Of a stretch of DNA of 64,000 nucleotides, positions 1-24,791 are shown piece after piece. Source of the DNA: Filosporella fistucella (lineage: Eukaryota; Ascomycota; Leotiomycetes; Helotiales). A program made the translations under genes and the position numbers. The notes beneath the pieces were generated by a model that saw nothing but the letters and a program-made list of their open reading frames with translations, had not been told where the DNA came from and did no database searches. Within the stretch, counting starts at the first letter, position 1, and each line of letters starts with the position of its first letter. The stretch covers positions 1 through 64,000 of the forward strand of contig JAQJZZ010000018.1 in the NCBI GenBank assembly GCA_030077755.1. The letters run 5' to 3'.

Positions 1-73
1 ACCCTAACCCTAACCCTAACCCTAACCCTAACCCTAACCCTAACCCTAACCCTAACCCTAACCCTAACCCTAA
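1..73. repeat. Telomere, CCCTAA repeats
   Basis: The first 73 bases are uninterrupted CCCTAA units (about 12). Their orientation, C-rich strand reading into the chromosome, is that of a left chromosome end with TTAGGG telomeres, the standard repeat of filamentous fungi. The array stops abruptly at unique AT-rich sequence. Confidence 0.98.
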
Positions 74-3000
74 TGGGCCGATTAATTAATTGCTAGCTAG
101 CTTCACGTTAATAACCGGTTTCTCCTATACTATAATTATTGCCAATGCTATTACGGCCTAACTTCTATAATCCATGCTATGCTATTAATGCTTGCTTATA
201 TGCCATGATTAACTCGGGCCCTAATCGATATAAAAATGCCCCATTAATAGCATAATGCGCTTGCGCTACCCTATGTCTATGTCCGGATTACTTATATTCT
301 ATATTAATTAAATATTTTATATATATTATTTCCCTTACCCGGCTAGGGAAATTAAACCTACCGGATTATAATATATTAAAATGTATTTAATTCTAATTCC
401 TTATTATTATCTCCTTTAGCAAATTCTTTAACTCCATCTTTAGGCTCCTTATGCTCCTTTTCCCACGTCTTGCTAGCCCATATTAACTTCCGGGTGGCAA
501 TTCTAATTGCGGTATGCCTTTATCCGGATGCCTTTAAATATACTCTTAAATGCTTTCTAGTAACGCTCCCTAACGCCTGGCTTAATTCCTCCCCGGCCCA
601 TGGTCCTTATAAATCCCTAAATAAATATTCCAACTCACGATAATTTAATGCCTAGGCAAATGGTCAAATTTATATTAAATATTAGGCTATGATTTGGCTA
701 ATATTATCTAATAAACACCATATAATATATTTTATATTTCCTCTTTTTTTCCGCGCCTTATTATATATAATTAAAAAACATATCCGACCATTTATAATAT
801 ATATATTACGTGCCGAATATATATTATTACTTACTTTAATGGATCCTAATTTAGGTCTACGTGCGGGCTGGCCTCCTAATCTAATAAATAACCATATAAT
901 GGATGGAATGGGCGGATATACCGGTAATATGCATATATATTATTAACTTTTATAAAAATTGACGTTTCTTGGTCAAATATAATATAATTTATGAATCTAC
1001 CCACTTAACTTTCTTGGTGGCGTGATTTGTCCTTAATAACCTCTATTGGCCCTCTCTTTTCCGTGCTCGCTCTAATAAAAACTTATAATCCCCGCCTACC
1101 TGGTCCTGATTTTGGGCATAATTAATAAAACTAAAATTTTGCCGCCAAAATGCTTGGCTCCATGCTATATTATTAATAATTTAACTCAAATTGATAGGGG
1201 GCACTAGGGATTTAAATGTTAATACTTTTATTAATTCCTATAATTCTTTAATTAATGCGTGACACATGCTCTAGACCTTGGCTAATATAATTAACTAGCC
1301 TAAATAATTAATCATTTATTTATTATCCGACTAATAGATATTAGATGGTAACTGGTGCGTTTTATTAAATTTCTTTCCCATAGCCAATTGCGTTAAAATA
1401 CTAGATATAGGTAAAAATGAACCCTTATATAAATGTAACTATTATAACTTATGGATTTAATTGGGCACGGAATTGATATCGGCTTTGCTATTTAATTTTA
1501 ATTCCGGCCATAGCTTATATGGGACGGCTACTTTTAATATAATTAATCAATTAATCTATAATATGCCTATTAAAATGGGCGTATAAAAAAATGCGGATCG
1601 CAATGACTAGCTTTGCTTATTAATACCTTAGATGGCTAAATAATGCATTATAGGTGAATAATATAATCTAATTCAGCTAATATCTTATATTATGATTAAT
1701 ATATATAAATATATTAATGCACTAATTAATGGTTAATCTTTTATATTATTATTTATTACTTCTTTATCTAATTTATTCCGGATTCTTTAGATATACTTCC
1801 ATTATGCATTAGTATATCTTATTCCGGTTTCTATAATCGTGGTCAAATTTTCTATTATATTTTGGAAATTATATTTAAATTATTAAAAATAATCTAATAT
1901 ATCTATTTTATTTATATGATTTTCTAATGGCGTTATACGTATTATATAATAAATGAAACATATAAAAATTCCATTATACTTATTAACGCTTTTGGCATTT
2001 TATAATAACTTAAATAGGCGCTAGTCCGCGGCTTTATTTTTGGGTAATGCCTACCACTTTAATGCGTCTTTATGGTCGGTTGCTTTTAATATGTTTAAAT
2101 AACGCTCTAAAATTCGATTTTATACACGTAATAATCGCTCTAATTACGGTTCGTCTAAGTCGGGCATACGGGTATAATAGAATATCTTAATCAAATTATA
2201 CTTGGATTGGCTTAATACCTCATTCCACTTTATATATCATAATCACGAATCCATTTTAATAATGGGCACCTCTTTTAATATCCATAATCGCCGCTCTTAG
2301 GCCTTACCCTTTTATTTTTTGATATCCTAAATAATTTAATTATTAATATCATCCTAGTCGCTCTCATTATTATTAATATTATTATTATTGCTATGGTCTA
2401 AATCATCGGTTTCTTTTCCAATATTACGTGTTATAGCTCGGCGCCTCTACCGCTCTTACTTATATTACTTGCTCTAGTTAATAATCCAATATCGGGCTCG
2501 TTAATCATTAAACCATAATTATAACTTGACTATCTTAAATAATTCTTTATTAGAAACCCTTTTCTTACTATAAATCTTATTCCCATGCTACCATATAATA
2601 TCTCGGTTCTGGCTTATATATAGGCAATCCTAATATAAATAGCCGTCTAAAATGGGAATAATAAGCTAGGGCGCTAATCCATTATTAGGCAATTATATAT
2701 TAGTATAATTATATTAAAACGGAAATGTTTAAATATATTTATTTAATTCTTTTTATAATTCGATTAGGGTTTTATGCTTATTACCCAAATGTCGGGAAAT
2801 AATAGTGGGCGAAATTGCATATTTGCACTATAAATAAATTAATATGCTAAACTTAACGTTTAACGTAATAATATAATTTAATACTTCGGGGATGGGTTAA
2901 GCTATGGCTCCTTGGCTATCTATGGTATTTTAAAATGATTCTGGGCAATGTGTAGGCGGTGATAATGGGTTTAGGGTTACTTGGGGTTAACCTATTTACG

Positions 3001-3350
3001 CTATGACTGGGCATAAATCACACTTTAATTTTACTACTATAAAAAAACCCATTCACGGTGTGAATAACGATAACTAATATTAGAGTCGGGGGCTAGAGTA
3101 GCTTTTATTTGGCTTATTATTTTCGCGGATAAAGGGAGGGGTAGGCGACCTAGGAGGAAAGTATATTTCTTTAGGCTCTAATAATAAAGCCGGATAAGGA
3201 ATTGCAGGAGGGGGAATTAAGGTCTGCTTAAGGTTTATTTAGTGGTTATTAAGACTCGGATTATTATCTACTTATAACGGCCTAAATGGTGACCCTAACC
3301 TTAGTGGACTATAGCGTCTTATTACTCGAGGGACTCGACTCTATATATTA
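74..3350. other. AT-rich subtelomere, no gene seen
   Basis: This stretch is dominated by A, T and TA-rich words and has no open frame that looks like protein. An 85-codon frame at 689-946 has TA-rich composition and no recognisable domain. TTAGGG-like and CCCTAA-like motifs near 2968-2990 and 3294-3300 could be old interstitial telomere sequence. The composition fits DNA mutated by RIP, as shown directly in the repeats just downstream. Confidence 0.7.
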
Positions 3351-4079
3351 AGTAAGCTAAATGCCTAAAGATATTAAGGATATAGGGTATCATAATTCAC
3401 CTGGTATTAAGTATTAAGTATTAGAGGTATGGATTTAGCGCTACTTGGAAGAGCTATAGTAAATGAGGAAAATGCTATTATATTTTAGCTTAGTGGCTTA
3501 GGGAATATAGCAGGAATAAAGGAGCTTGGTGGAGTAGGCTATTAGCCGCGGTTTGCGATTCTTTATCGCTACCGGTAGGTTCGCTTAATGGCTCGGCGCT
3601 TTTTCTCTCGCGGCGATAGCTTTAGTAGTATATTAACCGCTAGTAATACGGTAATAATTCAAGAGGGGCTTGGGGAAGAAATGTGGCATAAGTGGTATTT
3701 ATTTAGGGGAGAAGTAATTAATATTGGGATAAGCAGTGGTCGTGGTGGTGAGATTATTTTAAGGTAAGTAAAATTAAATATCATGTGATATTATATATTA
3801 CTAGATCGGGTAACGCTTTGCGACTAAGCTTAATATAATATTATATAATACCACGTAATAAGCCTAGGTCCTTATTAAAATGAAATTAAAGAAATTATAA
3901 TTAAGATAAAGATAAAGAATAAAGGGCATGCGATGCGCAATTAATTCCTAGCCTATTTGCATCCGATTAGCACCTAATTTGGCCCTAGATTAATTTATCT
4001 CTACCACGGTCGCCGTCAAGGATCGCGGGGGCGAGGCGTGGCCGCCTCGCTTAGCCGGCCGCCGCCCGCAATCTGGACC
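3351..4079. repeat. Direct repeat, copy 1 (RIP-marked)
   Basis: This 729-bp segment recurs at 4481-5209 at a constant offset of 1130 bp, with no indel in the parts I compared. The differences are almost all C/T or G/A, with this copy generally keeping the C or G. It ends in a GC-rich island at about 4015-4079 containing an 8-bp stem and 4-nt loop hairpin (4031-4050). No protein-coding content is visible. It is probably a fragment of a transposon or subtelomeric repeat; I cannot name the family. Confidence 0.88.
4031..4050. other. Perfect GC-rich hairpin in repeat copy 1
   Basis: Two complementary 8-mers (GCGAGGCG and CGCCTCGC) flank a 4-nt loop inside the GC island ending the direct repeat. 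The equivalent site in copy 2 (5161-5180) carries a single G-to-A change that breaks one pair. No function is known. Confidence 0.6.
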
Positions 4080-4290
4080 TTAATAGCGGTCCTAAGGACT
4101 TTTATAATAATTGTCTTAAACAATTTGCTATTATAGTTCCTAATAATTTAAGAAGAGGCTTATTGGCGAATTATAATATTAGTAGCACGCGCGGCGGCGC
4201 TAGTAATAATAGGGTTATTAATAAATATAATATTAGTGATTAAAAGGTTAATAAATTATATTCTTATCCTTAAAGGCAAAGAGTTTAAAA

Positions 4291-4481
4291 TATGAGACGT
4301 ATAAATGAAAGGCAATTTAATAAGTAAAATAAATTATATTCTAATATGAGACTAAATTCTAGCCTTTTAAAAAGCTAGAGTTAAATTATTTAAGGAATGC
4401 CTAAGGGGTTCTTATAAATTGCCAAATATAACTAAATAATTAAGGTTATATAAAATTATAATTCCAATTATATACTTAATA
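4291..4481. mobile_element. RIP-mutated LTR copy (191 bp)
   Basis: This aligns over its full 191 bp, without indels, with the solo LTR at 9352-9542. Nearly all differences are C-to-T or G-to-A in this copy, and the terminal TG/CA has become TA/TA. It lacks a clear target-site duplication: the 5 bases before and after differ. It abuts the second copy of the 729-bp direct repeat, so it may be one end of a larger, truncated element rather than a solo LTR. Confidence 0.82.
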
Positions 4482-5209
4482 ATAAGCTAAATATCTAAAG
4501 ATATTAAGGGTATAAGGTATTGCAATTTACTTAATATTAAGTATTAAGTATTAAAGATATGGATTTAGCGCCATTTAAAAGAATTATAATAAATGAAGAA
4601 AATGCTATTATATTTTAGCTTAATAGCTTAGGGAATATAATAGGAATAAAGGAGCTTGATAGAATAAGCTATTAATTATAATTTATAATTCTTTATCGCT
4701 ATTAATAAGTTCGCTTAATAGCTCGGCGCTTTTTTTCTCGCGGTAATAGCTTTAATAATATATTAATCACTAATAATATAATAATAATTAAAGAGGGGCT
4801 TAGGGAAGAAATATAGCATAAGTAATATTTATTAAGGGGAAAAATAACTAATATTAAAATAAGTAATAGTTATAATAATAAGATTATTTTAAGGTAAATA
4901 GGATTAAATATTATATAATATTATATATTATTAAATCGGGTAATACTCTATAATTAAATTAAATATAATATTATATAATATTATATAATAAGCCTAGGTC
5001 CTTATTAAAATGAAATTAGAGAAGTTATAATTAAGATAAAGGTAAGGAATAAAGGGCATGCGATACGCGATTAATTCCTAGCCTATTCGCATTTAATTAG
5101 CACCTAATTTGGCCCTCGATTAATTTATCTCTGCCACGGTCGCTATTAAGGATCGCGAGGGCGAAGCGTGGCCGCCTCGCTTAGCCGGCCGCCGCCCGTA
5201 ACCTGGACC
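4481..5209. repeat. Direct repeat, copy 2 (heavily RIP-mutated)
   Basis: This is the second copy of the 729-bp repeat (first copy 3351-4079, fixed offset 1130). It is much richer in A and T, through transitions such as CCGCGG-like words turned into TTATAA-like words. Its right border, in a GC-rich island, lies one base before the ATG of the broken gene at 5211, so the repeat appears to have cut off that gene's 5' part. Confidence 0.88.
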
Positions 5210-5210
5210 G

Positions 5211-6377
5211 ATGGAATTAGACCTTGGTCAACTCCAAGCCAGGATCACCAGACTAGAGATGGAATTAAACGAGTCCAGATCTCAATTGCAAACTTCCAAG
5301 ACTAGCAGTCTTCATATGATGGGAAGATTACTCTCAAAGGCAGTCAATCAACGTCAAGACACCAAGAAAGATCTGGAGATATATGAGATAGTTATTCGTG
5401 AGACATACCCCCTACCCGAGATACCTACACTCCCAGTCTTCGGCCTGGCGAATGCAATATACATTGCAGACGACTTTGTCGATTTACCAGGCAGACCTGC
5501 TCCAGACAACATGAGAGTGTACTTAGTTACATTGAACGATAATATTTGATATCGTATAAGTGATGACGTTGCAAGGATTAGGGCTGGAACAAACATTGCC
5601 CTTTCATGGGTCGGTACTCATATTGGTTCGATTCTAAGTTTATTCATGAGTCATGAAGAATATTTACTCCTGGATTCATACCTACAAAAGGTTTCAACCT
5701 TAGTCAAGCCAATGGGCTTTTCTAGGACTTGTCTTTTTATGATATTTGCAAGCCTCTCACATCGATCACTAGACATACCTTTAACCCCACTTTGGGCCAA
5801 TTTTCTAGCACAGTTGGTTGGAAACAGTTCATATGGAAAGTTTGATGAATGGTCTTTACTTGACAAAGTCACATTCTCATGCTTAATTTCAAGAGGTGTG
5901 GAATCTCTCTCCTTGGGAATTCTTGAACCGGATCAACCTCGACGACAAGCAATCCTCGATCCGATTAATGATTTTGTTAATCAACGATCAAGTAATTTTA
6001 TTTCCCTCTTGGAAAAGACGTCGATCCAAAAATATATGCTAGAAACCAATGACCAGTCCGAGATCCTCATAATCACTGACAAGGATTCAAGAAAGCTTGC
6101 CATCCTTCGGACAGGTTATGGTGTCAATGGATTCACGAAGAATGAGTTTATCTGGGTGAGAGATTCAAATAAAGTTACAATGAGTGCTAAAGGTCTTTAA
6201 CTCTTGTTCGACGGGCAAGCAAAGTTGTGGTTAAGACCAGAAGGAATGGATTCTATTCGGTGGTTTCCTTATGTGGAAGGTGAAGTTGATGGTTTGAAGG
6301 AGTATTTGGACCGCTGGTATGAAGATGAACTTGGTGTTGCGATTGATGAAGCTGGGTTTGAGGATATTGAAGGGTGA
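5211..6377 (+). pseudogene. Pseudogene 1 of an unrecognised three-copy family
   Basis: A single reading frame of 388 codons runs from ATG 5211 to TGA 6375 and is interrupted by two stops, TGA at 5547 and TAA at 6198. Both can be explained by one C-to-T change (CGA to TGA, CAA to TAA), as RIP or deamination produces. Residues 1-45 look like a coiled coil. Downstream are the landmarks IADDFV, DEWSLLDKVTF, LEPD, ILRTGYG and LLFDGQ, all shared with the broken copy at 13.6-15.1 kb or the minus-strand fragment at 13.3-13.66 kb. The homologous copy at 13.6 kb has extra N-terminal sequence, so this copy is probably truncated by the repeat that ends at 5209. I do not recognise the family. A TAT-to-protein function cannot be assigned. 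Confidence 0.72.
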
Positions 6378-6899: not shown

Positions 6900-8651
6900 T
6901 TACTCAGCCGAGATAGCCAGCCCATTGCCCTCAATCCCAAAGTTAACATCATCCAGCTCCTTCTGAAACGTTTTTGGCATTAGCACGCGCTCCAAACTGC
7001 CCAGTCCGTCATCCGTCTTGTACTTCGGAATAATGTATTGTGGTATCTCCACTATCTTGGTCTTGGTCACGTCATCCCACTTCACCCATACAAAACCCTT
7101 CTTCCCTTCTCCGAATTGATGTTCCCATCTAGTCTCTACACGGGCGTATACTTTACCGCCCGTCTTAACGGGATCTAAAGAGGGACATTTTAAACCACTG
7201 TATTTGGGAAGCCAACGGTAAGCCACGCAGGGGTGCATGAACTCGCGGGTCTCAACTCCTGACATCTCGAATCCATCGTTACCCACAGGATTAATCTCAC
7301 CGGGCTTGCGGATCACACTACCACCGGCAGCTATCCACTTCACGCCAAAAGTATCAGTGAGACTTCCTGTTGCGTAACTGGGCTCCTGTGATGCTTTCTC
7401 AGTATTCTGTGTTTTCGCGGGTGGAATTTTCTTGGACGATTTATTTTTTGGGTCGGTATTGGTTCGTTTCCCGACGGTGAGAGGAGGCAGCTTGGTGTCT
7501 GATGGAAAGATGGCATCAATGGCGCCCCGATCGAAAGTCAAGTAAGGCTTCACCAAGTCACACATCCATGCGAAGGTGATTTCATCAATATCATTTTCGT
7601 CTTTCCCCTCCCCAGTCGTTCCCCCTCCAACGTTTGCATGATATCCTGGGAACCAGCATTGGATGAGTCTGGTCTCTTTCCAAAGCTTTCCCTCTGGTGT
7701 CTCTTTTGGTATGTACCACAGCGTTGGTTGGAAGGCTCCACGGTGCTCGTCCAATGCTAGAGCATGGAATGCGTGCTTGATCTCTATATCTGAATTTAGC
7801 ATGTATGCTATTGATATTAGAGGTCAATTCAGAGATCACACTCACTCGGATCAAGACCAGTATTATGGAACTTGTATTTCTCGCTTATACCTGCCCAGTA
7901 GGTGAAGGCACTTTCAGGCAGCCCAAGACTTCCAACAGTATCCCAAACACCCACAACTTTAATTTCCACGTTCCGAACAGAGTTCGCTTCAAACATGTCC
8001 CAATTGGTGGGCCGCTCCTTTTTTTTGGCCGCCTCCTCTTCAGTTTCGTAAGGAGACTTGTAAGGCGTTTTCGCCCATTCGGTCTTGGAGAGATGTTCTG
8101 CTTCCTGCCCTTTCCGTCCCGGTTTCCTTCCCCTGTAGGCGGTATACATGTCGAAGAAGAGCTCCATACAATGAGGGTTTAAAAGACCAGCATGACAAAC
8201 AAGACCTGCAACTGCTCGAGCTGTAAAGGCACCACGGGAGAAGCCGAAGAGGAAAATGTCATCACCGGGGGAGTAGTTATTCACAAGAAAATTGTACGCG
8301 GAGCAGACATTCTCATTAAGACCAGCACCGAAGGCTCCTTTAAAGCGAAATATTAGTGTTCCAAGCTTAGGATTTAATGGTGAAGTGTAAATTACCTTGC
8401 CACATCTTATCAACCATTCCGAGATTGCCCGTGCCAACACCTGACTGGTAATAGACGATCTGAGATCGATTCTCGCCTTCATCCGGTCCGTATTCAACCA
8501 CTCCAACTTTGCTCAAAACGCGACTCATTCGTGCGACGTTGCTGGGAAGATTATTCTCTCCCTTGTCAGAGGCATACCATGTGCCATCGCAGCAGATAAT
8601 AATACGCTTTGGAACTCTTTTGTGCTCCGTCGTAGAGGTGGATGACTCCAT
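6900..8651 (-). CDS. DUF2235 alpha/beta-hydrolase-like protein
   Basis: Three exons, 8396-8651, 7846-8337 and 6900-7789, join in frame to give 545 residues. The introns are 58 and 56 nt with GT/AG ends. The start at 8651 precedes the family's N-terminal motif (KRIIICCDGTW). The protein has the DUF2235 hallmarks in order: DGTW, GAFGAGL, the nucleophile elbow GFSRGAF (Ser), GVWDTVGSLG (candidate Asp) and HALALDEHR (candidate His). In bacteria the same fold includes the Tle1 phospholipase effectors of type VI secretion. In fungi the family is common but its substrates are mostly unknown, so hydrolase activity is an inference. No signal peptide is visible. It is the only apparently intact gene in the first 16 kb. 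Confidence 0.88.
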
Positions 8652-16245: not shown

Positions 16246-17461
16246 TTAATCCGATTCCTCAGCATGAGGAATGATCCACCTCACTTCTCCTCCACCATCT
16301 TCCGCTGACCCTTGAAGCACACTCAACTTATCCGGGGTAAATCCGAATTCTCCCATTTCTTCCACCCCGAAATCATCATCACTACATAGTACTATATCTC
16401 CCCCACCCATAGTTGGAGTGCCATCTTGCATAACTACACCTTTCTTGTTCGCCGCATTCTTGAGAGTTCCCTTTTTATCATACCAAATCTTACGGACGCG
16501 GAACGCCACGATGAAGTCTGAAGCATGAGTCCAGGATTCGCCTTCTGTAGTTGTGGATTCGACATTGAACTTGCCTATTCGGGATTGTCATATTAGTTAG
16601 CATATTGACACCATGCCGCTCAGAATGTTAAGTTCCATCTCGGGCCAAAGTAGAGCAAGCCTTTCTAACTGAGCGAAAGATTTCATGGATAGACATACCA
16701 CCAAGCTGCGCTGGGGTTCCGGGTGGAACAATGCCTCCGTCAGTCTTGACCCCCTTCGCTTTTCCTGAACTACTCTTCAACGAAGCACCTCTACCAACCT
16801 TGAGCCCCGTGACCATGTATACAGGTTCTTTGAAGTCCGCTCCCTCCATGAACATCTTAACTTCCTGTAAAGCCATACTGGAGATAATGTAAGATGCTGG
16901 TGGATCAAAAGTCTGAGTCTCGAGGGTTTTGCAGGAGAGAACCTCTAAGGTTGACATCTTCGAGTCAGTATACTTCTTGCATAAGTAATAAGACTGCTTC
17001 GAGAGTCACCTGCCCATATTAAGACTTGCAAAAAGTCGAAACTCTGCAGTTTACCTAGAGGGAGAATCTGGTTCGAAGAAGTCACTTACTTGAGGAGTCT
17101 TCCCTGTATGAAACTTCAGCTCCAGCTCCGACGCCTACTAAACCCAGTACTCGAGCAAATAGCCTGTGATACTAAGTTGAATTTCTCTCTTATGGTACCG
17201 CTTAGGTGGTTCATTGCAAATAGGGTCTCGTTGAGAGAAAGCTGCTCACCCAAGTTCGCCACTCAAAAGCCGACTCCTCGACGTTTGGAAACCTTTCTGT
17301 ATATGAACCGGATTGACATATTCCTTTGGAGTGTCAAGAATAGTAAGGCGATTCAAAGCAGTGAACTCTGTAAGATCATCAAGGATATGACCCAGTTTTA
17401 TGGGTCCTTTAGGTGGTGGAGGAGTAGTCCAATTTGGGGCCAAGATATAAGTCTTCACCAT
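16246..17461 (-). CDS. Fungal gasdermin-like protein (RCD-1/HET-Q1 type)
   Basis: Four exons (17250-17461, 17090-17163, 16699-16944, 16246-16574) join in frame into 286 residues, near the 250-290 expected of fungal gasdermins. The introns (86, 145 and 124 nt) all have GT/AG ends. The order is: N-terminal TYILAPNW and GPIKLGHILDD (about 5-29), a glycine-rich GVGAGAEVSY stretch (about 81-90), LETQTFDPPASYI (about 103-115), a beta-strand VYMVTGLKVGRGASL (about 137-151), and SDFIVAFRVRKIWY (about 196-209), which resembles the AFRV/AYRV strand of animal gasdermins. An acidic, glycine-rich tail of about 42 residues (roughly 4.6 kDa) ends the protein. Gasdermins oligomerise into plasma-membrane pores and kill the cell. 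In Podospora the tail of HET-Q1 is inhibitory and is cut off by the adjacent subtilase HET-Q2. Here a subtilase gene ends 409 bp upstream on the same strand. Family assignment is from remembered motif patterns, not a search. Confidence 0.82.
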
Positions 17462-17870
17462 TTCTTATGTTTGAATTCGTTCGAGGATTCGGATTATATG
17501 CAACAAATGGTACGGAGTTGGCAGCTCACTCAACTTAAGCAGTGAGCGATGCTAGGCATGCAAGTGGAGGGAAATATGCAGGCGTTCTTGAACGGGACGC
17601 CTGCATTTCAGCTCCTGCATGTGCTGAAATTCCTACAGGAGATCACACCAATGATCGGGAAGACTGCTAATTTGAGTGTCAAGTATGCTTTCGAGTCTGA
17701 GATCCTGGTCAACGGCCTTGAATACTTTCTGATTTGCTCCGGCCGGAATCAGCATTCATTGTACCAATTCCAAGAATACTTGCATCCTTTTACCTTGTAC
17801 CTTGTAATTGTCTCCTACTCCCTGTGCATCCTATTTTCTCAATAATGTACATACAGGCAAGAATCCACCA
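17462..17870. promoter_or_regulatory. Spacer between protease and gasdermin-like genes
   Basis: These 409 bp separate the stop of the protease (17871) from the start of the gasdermin-like gene (17461), both on the minus strand. They must hold the protease terminator and the gasdermin promoter. No defined motif is recognised. The spacing is compact for this part of the window, which otherwise has kilobase gaps. Confidence 0.45.
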
Positions 17871-20800
17871 TTACTCTTTCAAAGCTTCTTTAATCTTGGA
17901 AACAACATCTCCTACAGACGCATTGGTATTCCACATCTTCCTCCACGGTGTGACATAGTTATATTTATCCCTAACATCACTCATGGCAATCAAGATGTTC
18001 CTAATACCCATCCTAGTGAACGTTTCTACCCGCTGCTCCTCAGTCATTAAGCCTGCACTCGTAACATGCTGAACAAAGCGCAATACATTGGCTGCTATAC
18101 CAACCATGATGGGGGTTGAGTAAGAGGTGCCCGATACAAAAACATCAGGCTCTGTGATAGAGGGGATGGCTACGCCGAGAGTGCTGAGATTTTCACTAAA
18201 GGGCTTGGGGGTAGGATCCATTCCGCTCTTGTTCCCGTCTCCATCTGAAGCTGTCGAGCAAATCAGCACTAAGATTATCGGAAATAAAGAGCGAGCTCTG
18301 AGAACTTAAGAGCTGACCAGAGGGCTGAAGCAATTGAGCAGACGGAACGAATTCGTTTCCTGTATTGTCGCGGCTCTCAAACTGGCCCCTGGCTCTGGAG
18401 CTCTCAGAGCTTCCATAGAAGAAGACAATTATTTAGCATGGGGAAAGACTAACCATGGATACAAAGCACCTTGTCGAGAAGTTTGGCAGGAAATAATCTT
18501 GGTGTATTGCCGCCGTAATTGGAAGCAGCCGCAAAGAATATAACTCCCTCCTTTTCAGCATTCTTTATCGCTTCTTTGATACTTAATTGGTCGTTGAGGA
18601 AGGCAAATGACATGCTGATAATATCCACATTCACGTTGGGAGACATTGCCCATTTGATTGCCTGCGTTTAGCTGTCAGAGAAAGCATTGTCTCGATATCT
18701 GGATATATACCTCCACAATTGGCTTTGCACCCTCTTCCTCCTGACCATTTGAAATTTTCGCAATGTATAGATTTGCTTCTGGTGCGATCTTTAAAATCAA
18801 GGACGCGACATTCGTACCGTGTCCGAAGGTGTCAGAACAGTCTGAATTGCCGGTGAAGGATTGGATGAGCTTGAAAGGTGAATCTCTCATCCTTCTTGTC
18901 CTCTTCAGGCCTCTGAAAAATGAGTGGTTCTCGCTGATACCCGTGTCAAGGACAGCGATACGAATTCTTCTCTCATTAGAAAGATTCTGAATGTGCTCGG
19001 AGTAGAAGTCCTTTGCCTGCGTCAGGAAGCGGTCGGCTCGAAAGATACTAGGAGGTGTCAATGCGTTTCTTTCGGCCCCCCATTGGCTAGTAAACATAAG
19101 CTTAAAAACCTACCGATCGTCCCCAGGATTAAATACCATCTTTCGAACATCAAATAGCTGGGTGGGAGATCCAAGATTAAATTCGTTCTGAGACATAGCA
19201 ATATTCATCCCTTCTTGTTTGCTTGCATATACTCCCATTGTCTTGGAGCCCGATGCGACAGAAGCTGTTGGACTGGCTAGGGAGTCTCCCTCTGCTAGTC
19301 GTTGACTTTGTACGTCGTTAGATACTTTGAGAGTTTTCGGAAAATTGGGGTCCTTTCGTGATTTTAAGGTACTTCTAGCTTCTTCGAGGCACACAACCAC
19401 TTTGGAAATCACTGCTCTACATTGAGAATTTTCGTCAATCTGGTCATGGTTCTGACTTTGGCGCCCATCATCCGTGTCGCAATCAGATTCAGAGTCCGAG
19501 TCATCATCTATCCTCCGCTTATTAGCTACGAGGCAAGCTGCGATGGCGTCTAAGTAGCCTTTGGCAACTGTTTCAGCTGCTTCACTCTCCTCTCCAATGA
19601 GTTCTAGCAATGCTATATCCCGAGGGACGGTAAATGGCCCCAGCGACATACCCAATGCAATTTCGAGCAGCAGCTTGGCAAATGTGATAAGGATTGCAAA
19701 TTTCCTTGATCGCTCCGGCTCATCATCCGTGAAGGTGTCGGTTTGCTGCAGAGAATACGCAAAGTAAGGATTGTACGCCTCGTATATAATACGTTCTTTG
19801 GGATTGAAGAGAAAGAAGATGTTATTTGTGTTCCACTCTTTGCTTTGCATCTTAGCATTGTACATTCGCTGAAACCCTCGAGCAAGGTTCATCGCGAGAA
19901 TGACCCGATCGACAGGAGTGAATTGATCCTTAATATTGGCAATGATTGACTCCAGGGAGACAGTTGGCCATACCGTAGCGACCTTGGTGCGATTCATGTC
20001 TGATTTGGAATAGCGGAGAATCTGACACGAATGGACCATAATGTCCAGAAGTTGATACTCCTCGAGAGCACGTTGAACATCTTTGCAGATCTTCTTGACA
20101 TTCTTTAATTTGCAATTCGAGGGCCTAGAAAATATTTAGCAACTAACAGCATACATATTTTCTGGGATAGGGATTTGCTTACAGGTCATGAACAACCGTG
20201 CAAGTTATTTCTTGCCACTTGTCTCGGATGCTGGAGCATGTAAGATATAATTTATATTGAATTCCAAGATCGACAGAGCTGTTATGCAGGCCTCGAATTT
20301 GAAGTCTAGCGATATGGAAGTCTGGACACTTTGTATCGCGGATATTGCTCCGTAATGCATCCATAACAGCCAATAGATTTTGATCCTCTCCCTGAGTGCC
20401 GTCAAACTGTTGGATCCTTTGGGTAGGCTTGATAGAGGGTTTTGGAGGACTCCTATCACTGACTTCGATGCTCCCGACATTGTCTCGACTTGCAGTATTG
20501 GACCGTGAAAGGTTCTTAGCGTTAAAGTCAGTCAACGTCTTCTCGACTACTTTGCAGTCTTCTTCTGCTTCAGGGAGTCGTAAAAGTCCGGATAGCCGTG
20601 AAGGATCGTGGTCATCCGCTGCTGCTTTTATCAGAGCCGCAAGTCTAGGATATATGAGCGATGCTAGCCCTTTCACAGTACTATTTGCCGAAGGCATGTT
20701 CTTGGCAGGTGGAGATGCATTTTCAAGGTCTGTCTTCGTGTACGAGTCGACCGAAGAACGAAGAACATTCTCGTCAACCAACCCTTCAAATAGCTGCAGT

Positions 20801-21042
20801 AGCCGATGGAAGTCATCGAGGAAAGACGCGTATTCATCTGCTTCTAAGTCTTGTTCCTTGCTCACATTTAGTAGAATTTGAGCTAATTCGAATTTGAAAA
20901 GAGCTCTCGAATTGGACACTGCTAGACTCGTGATTTTTTCTGAGTCGTCATCAATGCGCCTAGAGATGAGAGGCTCTAGAATTTGTCGAATCGCCACCAG
21001 GGCCTGTAATTCCTGTTGTCCGTCGTGCTCCAGCCGGGGCAT
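17871..21042 (-). CDS. Subtilisin-like (S8) protease with N-terminal DUF7580-like region
   Basis: Exons 20183-21042, 19114-20124, 18711-19047, 18454-18661 and 17871-18250 join in frame to about 931 residues. The start is uncertain: ATG 21042 is the first in this frame, which stays open to about 21114 without another ATG. The N-terminal half is alpha-helical, and about residues 290-420 resemble DUF7580, found at the N terminus of many fungal STAND and subtilase proteins. The C-terminal half is a peptidase S8 domain with all key residues: AVLDTGI (Asp about 658), FGHGTNVASL (His about 700), FAAASNYGG (oxyanion Asn about 784) and VSGTSYSTP (Ser about 848). There is no signal peptide, so it is probably cytosolic. 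Its closest functional model is Podospora HET-Q2, which activates the neighbouring gasdermin HET-Q1. Intron 3 is 49 nt, intron 4 is unusually long (203 nt), and intron 2 (66 nt) has an alternative 27-nt reading that I rejected. Confidence 0.85.
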
Positions 21043-21404: not shown

Positions 21405-24400
21405 ATGGCAAGTGATGATACTGGCGTTGAGATTAAGAGGAGGGATATATTCAATTTGGCCATCATATGCGAAGACCTTTTCTCGAAGTATGCAGACCCA
21501 GAACAGTCATTACCCGAGCCAAGGGCCCGAGCAGACCTCCAGCAACAGCGATTTGATATCTGGGCTTCATATCTGGGAGTGTTTGCACCGTATGATGTTT
21601 CACTTGACAGGCGGCTGGAGTACAGTGAAGAGATCCGCAACCTTGTGGTACATCTGTTGTCACTGATGCGAAAAAATCTGGATTTTGGTATGATTCCGTA
21701 ACTCATATGCCATCCAAGTAGTCATTCACTGCTGACAGCACTCGCAGTCTCACATGATGGTGAAAGCGAGAAGCAATCCTTACTGGGCAGCACTATTCTT
21801 AAAGGAAAAGATGTCCACGCGGCTACCACATTGATCGGAACTGCCTCAGAAGCATTAGACACTATTGAAGCTACGATAGATAGATTGAATAGACTGGGCT
21901 CTACTATTCGAAAATTTTCTACAGCAAGCCTCGAAACTAGAGTCAAGGCGTTTACGAGCCAACATGGCGACGAAAATTATCCTGCATTCGCTAAGCTAAT
22001 AGTAAAATTTCGGTATATGACAGCTCCCACATCCCTTCAGGAACATCTCGCCGTTTCAATGTCATCGCGACGCCAGAGACTACGTTATATGGGCCGACAT
22101 CAAGCAAAACTTGCTGCTCGAGAGCCAACTAGATCACATAAACTAGAAGAGCGTGGCCAGGTTCAAATAAAGAAGTCGGCGCGCGTACGATTCGTTTCGA
22201 TAATGGAGGAAGAAGATGCAGATAAGCCGGTCGAGTCGGACCTTGCTCAGAGAGACAAGAAGAGGGGTTTCCGTTCCTTGCAGAACAACCCATTTATAAA
22301 GGGATTCGCTCCCTCAAATGTAGGATCAAAGGCATCAACGTTCAAACCACCACCGTCTGTAGTTGCTCGATTACGGGTAGATGGAGGTTCAGTGGTATCA
22401 TCTTCAAAGAATAGCAAGACTTTCATGGCCGAAGATCTTGAAAATTATCCCGCAGCTCCGACAATGGAACCGGGAAAGCCACCTCCTACCTGTCCCTATT
22501 GCCACAAACCACTTGAGGCTGCGGAGCTAGAAGCCAGGAAATGGCAGTATGAAGCTTATTTGGACCATGAAATCATTAAATACTAACTGATATTTTAGTC
22601 GACATGTAAATCAAGATCTCCAACCATTTGTCTGCATCTCCGAGAATTGCAGTCAGCCACCGCAGTCTTTCTGGGATTTCGAAATATGGGCTAAACATAT
22701 GAGAGAATCACATTCTAGCAAGTGGACACAACAAGTTCACAAACCCGTTATCTGGCGATGTGATTTGTATCACACTGAGGAGGTCTTTGCCGAAGAGACA
22801 AAGTTTGAACAACACCTCACTGATGAACACTCCAGCGCCACTCTAACTGAGCGCAAAGCTATCTCCAGATCGAGTAGGAGTACCCGAAAACGACGTCCAC
22901 ATACATGTCCATTTTGTGGCTTCAATATTTCTCTTCTCGACTCGACTCAGCCACGAAGCCCTTTCGGAACCACCAGAGACTCAACCAACGCCAACGAAGA
23001 TGAAGCATTACACAAGCTTGCCAGACACGTAGCCAGTCATCTCAGGCTCTTAGCATTTACCAGTGCAGATAATCTTGATGCCGAAAATGACGATAGCTCC
23101 AGAGGAAGTATCAAATCTTTGGAGATGAGGTCAAAAGATGGCTCCAAAACACATCCGCCTAGTGGAATAAAGGATATGTCCAGAGGCAAGTTGTCATTTG
23201 TCGATGAAGGACCCGAAGATGTCACACTACGGATCCTATGGGTCAATCAGCAAGATGATACAGACCCAGACTGGTCTTCGAGGGAAAGGCAGGACATGGA
23301 AATAGCACCAGAATATGACTATCCAACTGAGGGGTTGAGCTGGACCAAGGTAAAGGATATATTGAAGACAAAACTAGAGCCTGAAATATTGGCAGAGCTG
23401 GAACATACAGATAAGGAGAAAGATTTTGACAAGCCACGGCATCACATTTACCAGCGCCAACTCCTGATCTGGCTCCGAGAGCAAAATGTCGAGGTTGAGA
23501 GTATCGCATATGCCATTATCAAATTCAGTTGGCCCGAGGCATCTTCCACCATCCAACAGCAGGTTCTTGAAGGATGTATGATCAGTCGGGCTCGAAGACT
23601 GCAGAAAGCATTAATTATAGATAATACTCCAGCACCAATCAGATTCTCGCGTGAGCCGGTTCGAGAGGCAGTGGAACTTAGCCCATCGCCTCCACCACCT
23701 CCTATTTTTATTCATAAAGCCCCAATAGGGGTACCCGTCCTGATACCACCCTACCAAAGGTATCTGGGAGAAGACTTGAAAGCGGAGGAGTTTAGCAGCC
23801 GAAGAGACCCGGAAAAATGGGATCGATACCAAGACACGCCAGGCAGGTATTCAGATCCCTACGATTTAGTCCCGTCCGAAGGTTCTGCCCGAGAGACTCT
23901 GTCTCGGCATCCACACCACCGTTTTGCAGATGCAGCATCCCATACCAAAGCACCAAGCGAAGTGATTTCTTCGTACACTGAAGGAACAAAATCTGAGATA
24001 ATGCGAAACTTAGCAAGGTCCCCAGATGAAAAGGAGGGATATCCACCATTTCCCCGAGGGCGTAAATGCCCGTTTTGCCTGGAAGACATCTCAAACTTAA
24101 TGCCGTTATCCTGGAGGTATGTATAATAAAAGCACCCTAATCTCGGATATGCATCGAATTACGGTTTGTTGACTATATTCATAGATCACATGTAAATCAG
24201 GATCTCCAGCCATATGTTTGTATTGAAGTTAGTTGCGCTGATACCCTGAGACTCTTCCACTCCTCCAAAGATATGCGCAAGCACATGGCAACTAGCCATC
24301 CTAACGCTTTCGATGACTTGGTTTGTCCAATTTGCAAGGTGTACATCGATCAAGGCGAGGGTGGGCTCACTGGAGACCTCAAAGCCAGGGTAGCTAAATC

Positions 24401-24791
24401 GGCGCTTTATAGGCACATTGCTGCGCATTTACAAAGTATCGCTCTTAAGCTAGCGCAACTTTCCGATGGCGATCCAGAAAGAAGTGATCAGGTTGGTACG
24501 AGCGCTGAAGAGATATATCGTAGCCAGTCAGGTGGTTCTCGGGATGGTCTCAGTGATGTCACGTTGGAGAACTTTGAGTACGAGACCACACATAACTTTC
24601 AATATGGAGACATACCTAACGAGGAGCGACGAATGGCATCAAGTAACATTGACCTAGATGTGCCAAACGTCGAGACCGACAATTTGAACGATATTTGGGC
24701 TTTCATCCAAGAGCAGAGAGCTGGTGAATTCGACGACCCTGCAAAGGACCGAGTTCTCGAACATATTAGGCTTCTCAGAGGTCAATTTTGA
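21405..24791 (+). CDS. AcuF-type C2H2 zinc-finger protein
   Basis: Four exons (21405-21687, 21748-22546, 22599-24116, 24185-24791) join to 1068 residues. All introns are 52-68 nt with good splice signals, including a TACTAAC branch in the second. The protein belongs to the large fungal set with zinc fingers of the type described as oxidoreductase acuF-like C2H2. It has an N-terminal helical region, then a finger cassette starting CPYC (C343, C346) and continuing HVNQDLQPFVC, a middle finger HTCPFCGF, and a second cassette starting CPFC (C851, C854) and continuing HVNQDLQPYVC. In each cassette the intron interrupts the same place, two nucleotides into the codon after the conserved Trp, so the cassette duplicated with its intron. 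Pro-rich and Glu/Asp-rich linkers separate them. The role is unknown; such proteins often neighbour NLR or HET-type genes. It is transcribed away from the protease. Confidence 0.85.

What the first reader, a model, noticed from the sequence alone, without database searches (positions are those of the whole stretch)
16246..21042. Gasdermin-like gene next to a subtilase: a likely cell-death cassette
Seen: a 286-codon four-exon gene with fungal gasdermin-like motifs (TYILAPNW, LETQTFDPP, VYMVTGLKVGRGA, SDFIVAFRVRKIWY) and, 409 bp away on the same strand, an S8 protease with Asp, His, Asn and Ser catalytic residues. Known: Podospora HET-Q1 (gasdermin) and HET-Q2 (subtilase) are adjacent, HET-Q2 cleaves HET-Q1 to release its pore-forming part, and many fungal gasdermin genes cluster with protease genes. 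Inferred: this is a working homologue of that system in a subtelomere, a place suited to allelic diversity. The gene is easily missed because its exons are short and only one is an obvious frame.
Basis: partly seen in the sequence, partly recalled or inferred. Interest (0 to 1): 0.93.

Follow-up and report, generated by a model that had tools for sequence, protein, structure and literature searches.

The report
Fungal gasdermin with its sensor protease
Near a chromosome end of a fungus lies an intact pair of genes for a pore-forming cell-death protein and the protease that probably switches it on: a real but already known kind of fungal self-killing system, here with a little-studied, possibly kinase-like sensor part.

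The parts
17250..17461 (-). gasdermin exon 1 (ATG at 17461), codons 1-70 and part of 71
   Evidence: donor GTGAGC; 55 of 56 relatives ungapped across the junction
17090..17163 (-). gasdermin exon 2, to part of codon 96
   Evidence: CACAG acceptor, GTAAGT donor; 55 of 56 relatives ungapped across the junction
16699..16944 (-). gasdermin exon 3, to part of codon 178
   Evidence: CTTAG acceptor, GTATGT donor; 55 of 56 relatives ungapped across the junction
16246..16574 (-). gasdermin exon 4 with stop; ends the pore-forming domain and encodes the acidic tail (residues 227-286)
   Evidence: net charge +8 for residues 1-226, -13 for 227-286
20183..21042 (-). Q2L protease exon 1 (ATG at 21042): helical N-terminal region (predicted in relative P0067) and start of DUF7580
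   Evidence: PF24476 at E 1.5e-4 (below its cut-off in this exon alone)
19114..20124 (-). Q2L protease exon 2: most of DUF7580 (possibly kinase-like) and an acidic linker
   Evidence: PF24476 E 1.4e-24; weak profile matches, to kinases only
18711..19047 (-). Q2L protease exon 3: S8 domain with Asp658 and His700
   Evidence: PF00082 E 1.4e-6
18454..18661 (-). Q2L protease exon 4: S8 domain with Asn784
   Evidence: PF00082 E 3.7e-6 on the open frame 18449-18667
17871..18250 (-). Q2L protease exon 5 with stop: S8 domain with Ser848 (GTSYSTP)
   Evidence: PF00082 only E 0.06 on the open frame 17871-18305 that contains this exon; S8 found in all 37 relatives
17462..17870 (.). 409-bp intergenic stretch between protease stop and gasdermin ATG, the likely gasdermin promoter (inferred)

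Best explanation
This is a two-gene regulated cell-death module of the fungal gasdermin / HET-Q2-like (Q2L) type. The gasdermin is made as an inactive intracellular protein: a basic pore-forming domain (about residues 1-209), a flexible linker with the conserved patch VVMQDG (224-229), and an acidic tail that holds it inactive. The protease is made as a latent sensor: a helical N-terminal region, a DUF7580 domain that may be a degenerate protein kinase, then a subtilase. An unknown trigger read by the N-terminal half releases the subtilase, which cuts the gasdermin linker (about residue 226-232, removing a piece of about 6 kDa). The freed domain flips from net negative to net positive, binds acidic membrane lipids, assembles into pores and kills the compartment. 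Shown here: family identity, open frames, conserved pairing, parallel divergence, charge split. Inferred: cleavage, its place, autoinhibition by charge, latency of the protease, cell death itself.
Against: No transcript, protein or phenotype data. No Pfam model recognises this gasdermin. A single-sequence PDB search reaches RCD-1 only at 1e-4 and does not list HET-Q1 at E up to 10. Both AF2 models are of relatives, not of the window's own proteins, with mean pLDDT 63 and 73; Foldseek TM for the 14 RCD-1 chains, normalised by the query, is only 0.30-0.40. The kinase reading of DUF7580 rests on a best E of 0.043, and 26 of its 28 matches are one protein, IRAK4. In one of the seven assemblies the matching genes are not adjacent (LCI18_006330 / 006843), and a second gasdermin relative of another (ACHAPT_004165) has no listed partner. 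The basic/acidic split is not universal: the pore part is net positive in 96 of 113, and the genome's own C3 paralogue is -3.
Confidence: 0.82

Rival explanations
1. A heterokaryon-incompatibility locus: allelic forms of the gasdermin or the protease in other strains are incompatible, and death follows fusion of unlike hyphae, as with het-Q or rcd-1.
For: The two characterised fungal gasdermins, RCD-1 and HET-Q1, act in allorecognition (PMC10197012, PMC12881547, passages); subtelomeric place.
Against: Both partners are open frames in one genome, and the protease keeps a sensor-like half of about 600 residues, unlike the 388-aa HET-Q2. No alleles seen. The two uses do not exclude each other.
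Confidence: 0.25
2. Cleavage-independent gasdermin of the RCD-1 kind; the protease is a neighbour without a direct role.
For: Closest solved relatives by sequence are RCD-1 proteins.
Against: RCD-1 proteins are 244 and 257 aa (PMC12881547), and their PDB chains end 16 and 26 residues after the last aligned position, while this protein has 77 residues there with conserved parts; conserved pairing and parallel divergence.
Confidence: 0.06
3. The gasdermin opens pores for a non-lethal task such as secretion.
For: A role of these clusters in secretion is named as something to explore in PMC12881547 (passage).
Against: Both characterised fungal gasdermins kill; no evidence here either way.
Confidence: 0.08
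4. A decaying subtelomeric pair whose open frames happen to survive.
For: Subtelomeric place; AT-rich flank at 1-6 kb.
Against: All nine predicted exons are open, all seven introns are GT..AG, the four catalytic residues are kept, and the gasdermin keeps the residues invariant in its alignment.
Confidence: 0.04

Closest known systems
Podospora anserina HET-Q1 / HET-Q2
   Same: Gasdermin of about 280 aa with a short C-terminal tail; S8 subtilase partner; HET-Q1 pore (PDB 9uv9) found by profile at 3e-11.
   Different: HET-Q2 is 388 aa and in a proposed model a constitutively active product of rearrangement; here 931 aa with DUF7580, and both genes open in one genome. The 9uv9 chain is 232 residues long, shorter than the cut position F238, so the cut sites were not aligned; the conserved patch in the like region here is VVMQDG.
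Neurospora crassa RCD-1-1 / RCD-1-2
   Different: RCD-1 needs two allelic forms and no protease, and has no tail of comparable length.
Q2L multidomain proteases clustered with fungal gasdermins
   Same: S8 domain fused to a sensor part beside a gasdermin gene; about 63% of fungal gasdermins are clustered with S8 genes (PMC10197012); fusions to kinase-like domains are mentioned in print (PMC12881547).
   Different: DUF7580 is not named in the passages I read, and a search for 'DUF7580' found 0 papers in the held library.
Bacterial gasdermins with adjacent proteases
   Same: Two-gene layout, short inhibitory tail (PMC12881547).
   Different: Only marginal profile similarity (0.08-0.19).

Membership tests
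Fungal gasdermin (fGSDM) | Sequence homology to characterised members | tested here: met
   RCD-1-2 6e-19, HET-Q1 3e-11 with a 26-member profile
Fungal gasdermin (fGSDM) | Gasdermin N-domain fold | tested here: met
Fungal gasdermin (fGSDM) | Membrane pore formation | not testable with these tools
   needs a liposome or cell assay
Q2L-controlled gasdermin cluster | Protease gene within 10 kb | tested here: met
   409 bp; consecutive locus tags in 6 of 7 other assemblies
Q2L-controlled gasdermin cluster | S8 (or CHAT) protease with complete catalytic set | tested here: met
Q2L-controlled gasdermin cluster | Short removable C-terminal tail on the gasdermin | tested here: inconclusive
   77 residues after the last strand, conserved patch and acidic tail; removal not shown
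HET-Q allorecognition system | S8 protease without a sensor half, about 390 aa | tested here: not met
   931 aa with an N-terminal half of about 600 residues; HET-Q2 388 aa
HET-Q allorecognition system | Polymorphic incompatible alleles in a population | not testable with these tools
   one genome only
RCD-1 type | No inhibitory tail | tested here: not met
   77 residues after the last strand against 16-26 in the RCD-1 chains
RCD-1 type | Two antagonistic alleles | not testable with these tools
   one genome only
Animal gasdermin | C-terminal repressor domain of about the size of the pore domain | tested here: not met
   only 77 residues follow the pore domain; no gasdermin family among Pfam matches
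Protein kinase / pseudokinase (DUF7580 part) | Kinase fold | tested here: inconclusive
   the 28 PDB sequences with E up to 10 are three kinases (26 of them IRAK4), best E 0.043; no kinase family in Pfam for 27 relatives at E up to 1; not folded separately
Protein kinase / pseudokinase (DUF7580 part) | Catalytic motifs HRD and DFG | tested here: not met
   no HRD, DFG or G-loop in residues 211-510 (a D-[FLY]-G match at 258 lies far N-terminal of the expected place), so at most a pseudokinase

The most novel reading that the evidence does not exclude
DUF7580 is a degenerate kinase domain that serves as the sensor of a conserved gasdermin-protease pair, so this family is a pseudokinase-gated pyroptosis-like pathway: the MLKL design (helical bundle plus pseudokinase) placed on the activating protease instead of on the killer. 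The gasdermin is held off by a charge lock: an acidic tail over a basic pore domain, released by one cut at or near the conserved V-M-Q-D-G patch, and the lock is common to fungal gasdermins.
Probability: 0.28. Interest if true: 0.65.

Novelty: new member of a known kind. Interest (0 to 1): 0.42.

Why it matters
Which stimuli activate the putative sensors of fungal gasdermin pathways is called a major open question (PMC12881547, passage). This pair gives a compact test case: one gasdermin, one protease, and a sensor half without a second close copy in this genome that may be a pseudokinase. The acidic tail, seen in 113 of 113 aligned gasdermins, offers a simple, testable account of how fungal gasdermins, which lack the large repressor domain of animal ones, are kept inactive.

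Tried and rejected
Pfam on the gasdermin and on 35 relatives: no gasdermin model fires, only matches above E 0.03 such as PF06120; this says nothing against the identity. Pfam on 27 Q2L relatives at E up to 1: DUF7580 and S8 in 27 of 27, ten further families in one member each, no kinase family; this counts against the kinase reading. Rfam: no match in the window at gathering score. CHAT proteases as the partner: 10 matches in the genome, none near the three gasdermin genes. A loose pattern for the cut-site patch matched 47 of 113 tails against 15 on average (25 at most) in shuffled tails; the patch is strong in close relatives but reads differently in the Aspergillus/Penicillium group (AAYLSKDD), so I do not claim one universal cut site. 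The third neighbour (divergent gene from 21405) was considered as a third component; not tested.

Full report
Observation. The window is the first 64 kb of a 2.63-Mb contig of a 45.8-Mb, 19-contig fungal assembly and begins with 73 bp of CCCTAA repeat. On the minus strand, exons 17461-17250, 17163-17090, 16944-16699 and 16574-16246 give a 286-codon frame. Exons 21042-20183, 20124-19114, 19047-18711, 18661-18454 and 18250-17871 give a 931-codon frame. For the second gene I chose this set from 78 open combinations by canonical splice sites and by fit to what I know of the S8 family, so its junctions could move. At each gasdermin junction 55 of 56 relatives of at least 250 aa align over ten residues without insertion or deletion.

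The tail. After the last strand (FRVRKIWY, to residue 209) 77 residues follow. In the P0001 model the linker is mostly below pLDDT 50 (its residues 213-226 and 228-232). The best conserved part of the tail is VVMQDG at 224-229 of the window's protein, Met226 being nearly invariant. The 232-residue HET-Q1 chain aligns up to its residue 222 against profile position 216, so HET-Q1's reported cut at F238 (PMC10989679, passages) would fall near residue 232 here; this is an extrapolation past the end of the chain. Residues 1-226 carry net charge +8 and 227-286 carry -13. I aligned 113 gasdermins: those of at least 250 aa among the hits listed (one search found 281 and listed 120), plus the three of this genome. 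The tail has pI below 5 in 113 and is more acidic than every same-length stretch of the rest in 111; shuffled proteins give 9 on average, 21 at most. The part before it has pI above 7 in 96 of 113. As a rough outside control, the last 60 residues are net negative in 9 of 37 Q2L relatives. The sequences are related, so 113 is not 113 independent cases.

Pairing. Searching the genome with each of the three gasdermins returns the same three genes; more distant ones could be missed. The C7 copy (283 aa, one exon) is divergent to a TPR frame followed by an S8 gene; the C3 copy (293 aa, one exon) is convergent with an S8 gene. Distances to the nearest S8 match are 1274 (the gene itself ends 409 bp away), 2873 and 307 bp. 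With 22 S8 loci in 45.8 Mb, random placement would put all three within 3 kb with probability about 4e-8. Elsewhere, seven assemblies show a numbered locus tag for both a gasdermin relative and a DUF7580-S8 relative. Six pairs are consecutive (ACHAPT_009169/009170, ACJ41O_015090/015089, QQS21_002507/002506, LRP88_00608/00607, CEP54_011988/011989, CEP51_001717/001718) and one is not (LCI18_006330/006843). One further same-prefix case (V8C35DRAFT) was left out because I take JGI 'DRAFT' numbers not to be positional. The records themselves were not seen. For seven pairs (this one, the first five consecutive ones, and Fusarium falciforme, whose two proteins share a contig length; CEP51 was found later and not added) pairwise identities correlate at 0.93, reached by 10 of 5040 permutations. 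Three species that I recall as members of one Fusarium species complex (F. falciforme, F. phalaenopsidis, F. duplospermum) fall into two groups, and both genes agree on the groups, as expected if the pair is inherited as a unit.

Mechanism. From work on fungal gasdermins as told in reviews (PMC12881547, PMC10197012, PMC10989679; passages only; the primary paper by Clave et al. 2022 was not held), the best account is removal of the tail by the neighbouring sensor protease, then pore formation. Because both genes are open in one genome, the protease must be latent until triggered; this is an inference from viability. The N-terminal half is the natural place for the trigger to act.

What is and is not new. 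About 80% of fungal gasdermin genes lie beside protease genes, about 63% beside S8 genes, and fusions of the protease to kinase-like domains are already mentioned. The pair is thus a new member of a known kind. In the held library, 'DUF7580' gives 0 papers and 'fGSDM' 4 (I read passages of three of them). A search for fungal gasdermin with pseudokinase, subtilisin and sensor listed 10 of 2,958 papers, of which I saw titles and abstract starts. I saw no description of a DUF7580-S8 gasdermin pair or of a charge lock; most subscription papers are not held, so this is weak evidence of absence.

Noticed in passing
window 6903-8512 (-): Two neighbouring frames match the Tle1-like phospholipase domain PF09994 (5.9e-22 and 2.1e-42), consecutive along the profile; an intron or a frame break lies between them.
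   Followed up: no
window 21405-24788 (+): Consecutive open frames, one with weak zinc-finger similarity (zf-Di19, below cut-off), look like a multi-exon gene whose likely ATG lies 362 bp from the protease start on the opposite strand, so the two may share a promoter region.
   Followed up: no
window 1-6000: AT-rich stretch next to the telomere (GC 0.30-0.34, against 0.43-0.48 from 10 kb on; 8-10 kb dips to 0.35), with no frame of 140 aa or more before 5550.
   Followed up: no
L023:3068-3922 (-) and L023:5062-7840 (+): Second gasdermin of the genome, one exon, divergent from a TPR frame followed by an S8 subtilase.
   Followed up: partly
L024:5239-6369 (-) and L024:4087-5130 (+): Third gasdermin, one exon, convergent with an S8 subtilase; the frame just upstream of the subtilase matches no Pfam family.
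   Followed up: partly
proteins P0053 (Purpureocillium lilacinum) and P0063 (Colletotrichum higginsianum): Gasdermin relatives of 283 and 299 aa are named 'major facilitator superfamily MFS-1' in public records, probably a misannotation.
   Followed up: no
G000, 11 places listed: DUF7580 matches at least 11 places of this genome; of these only the window copy is next to an S8 match, so the domain probably has other uses.
   Followed up: no
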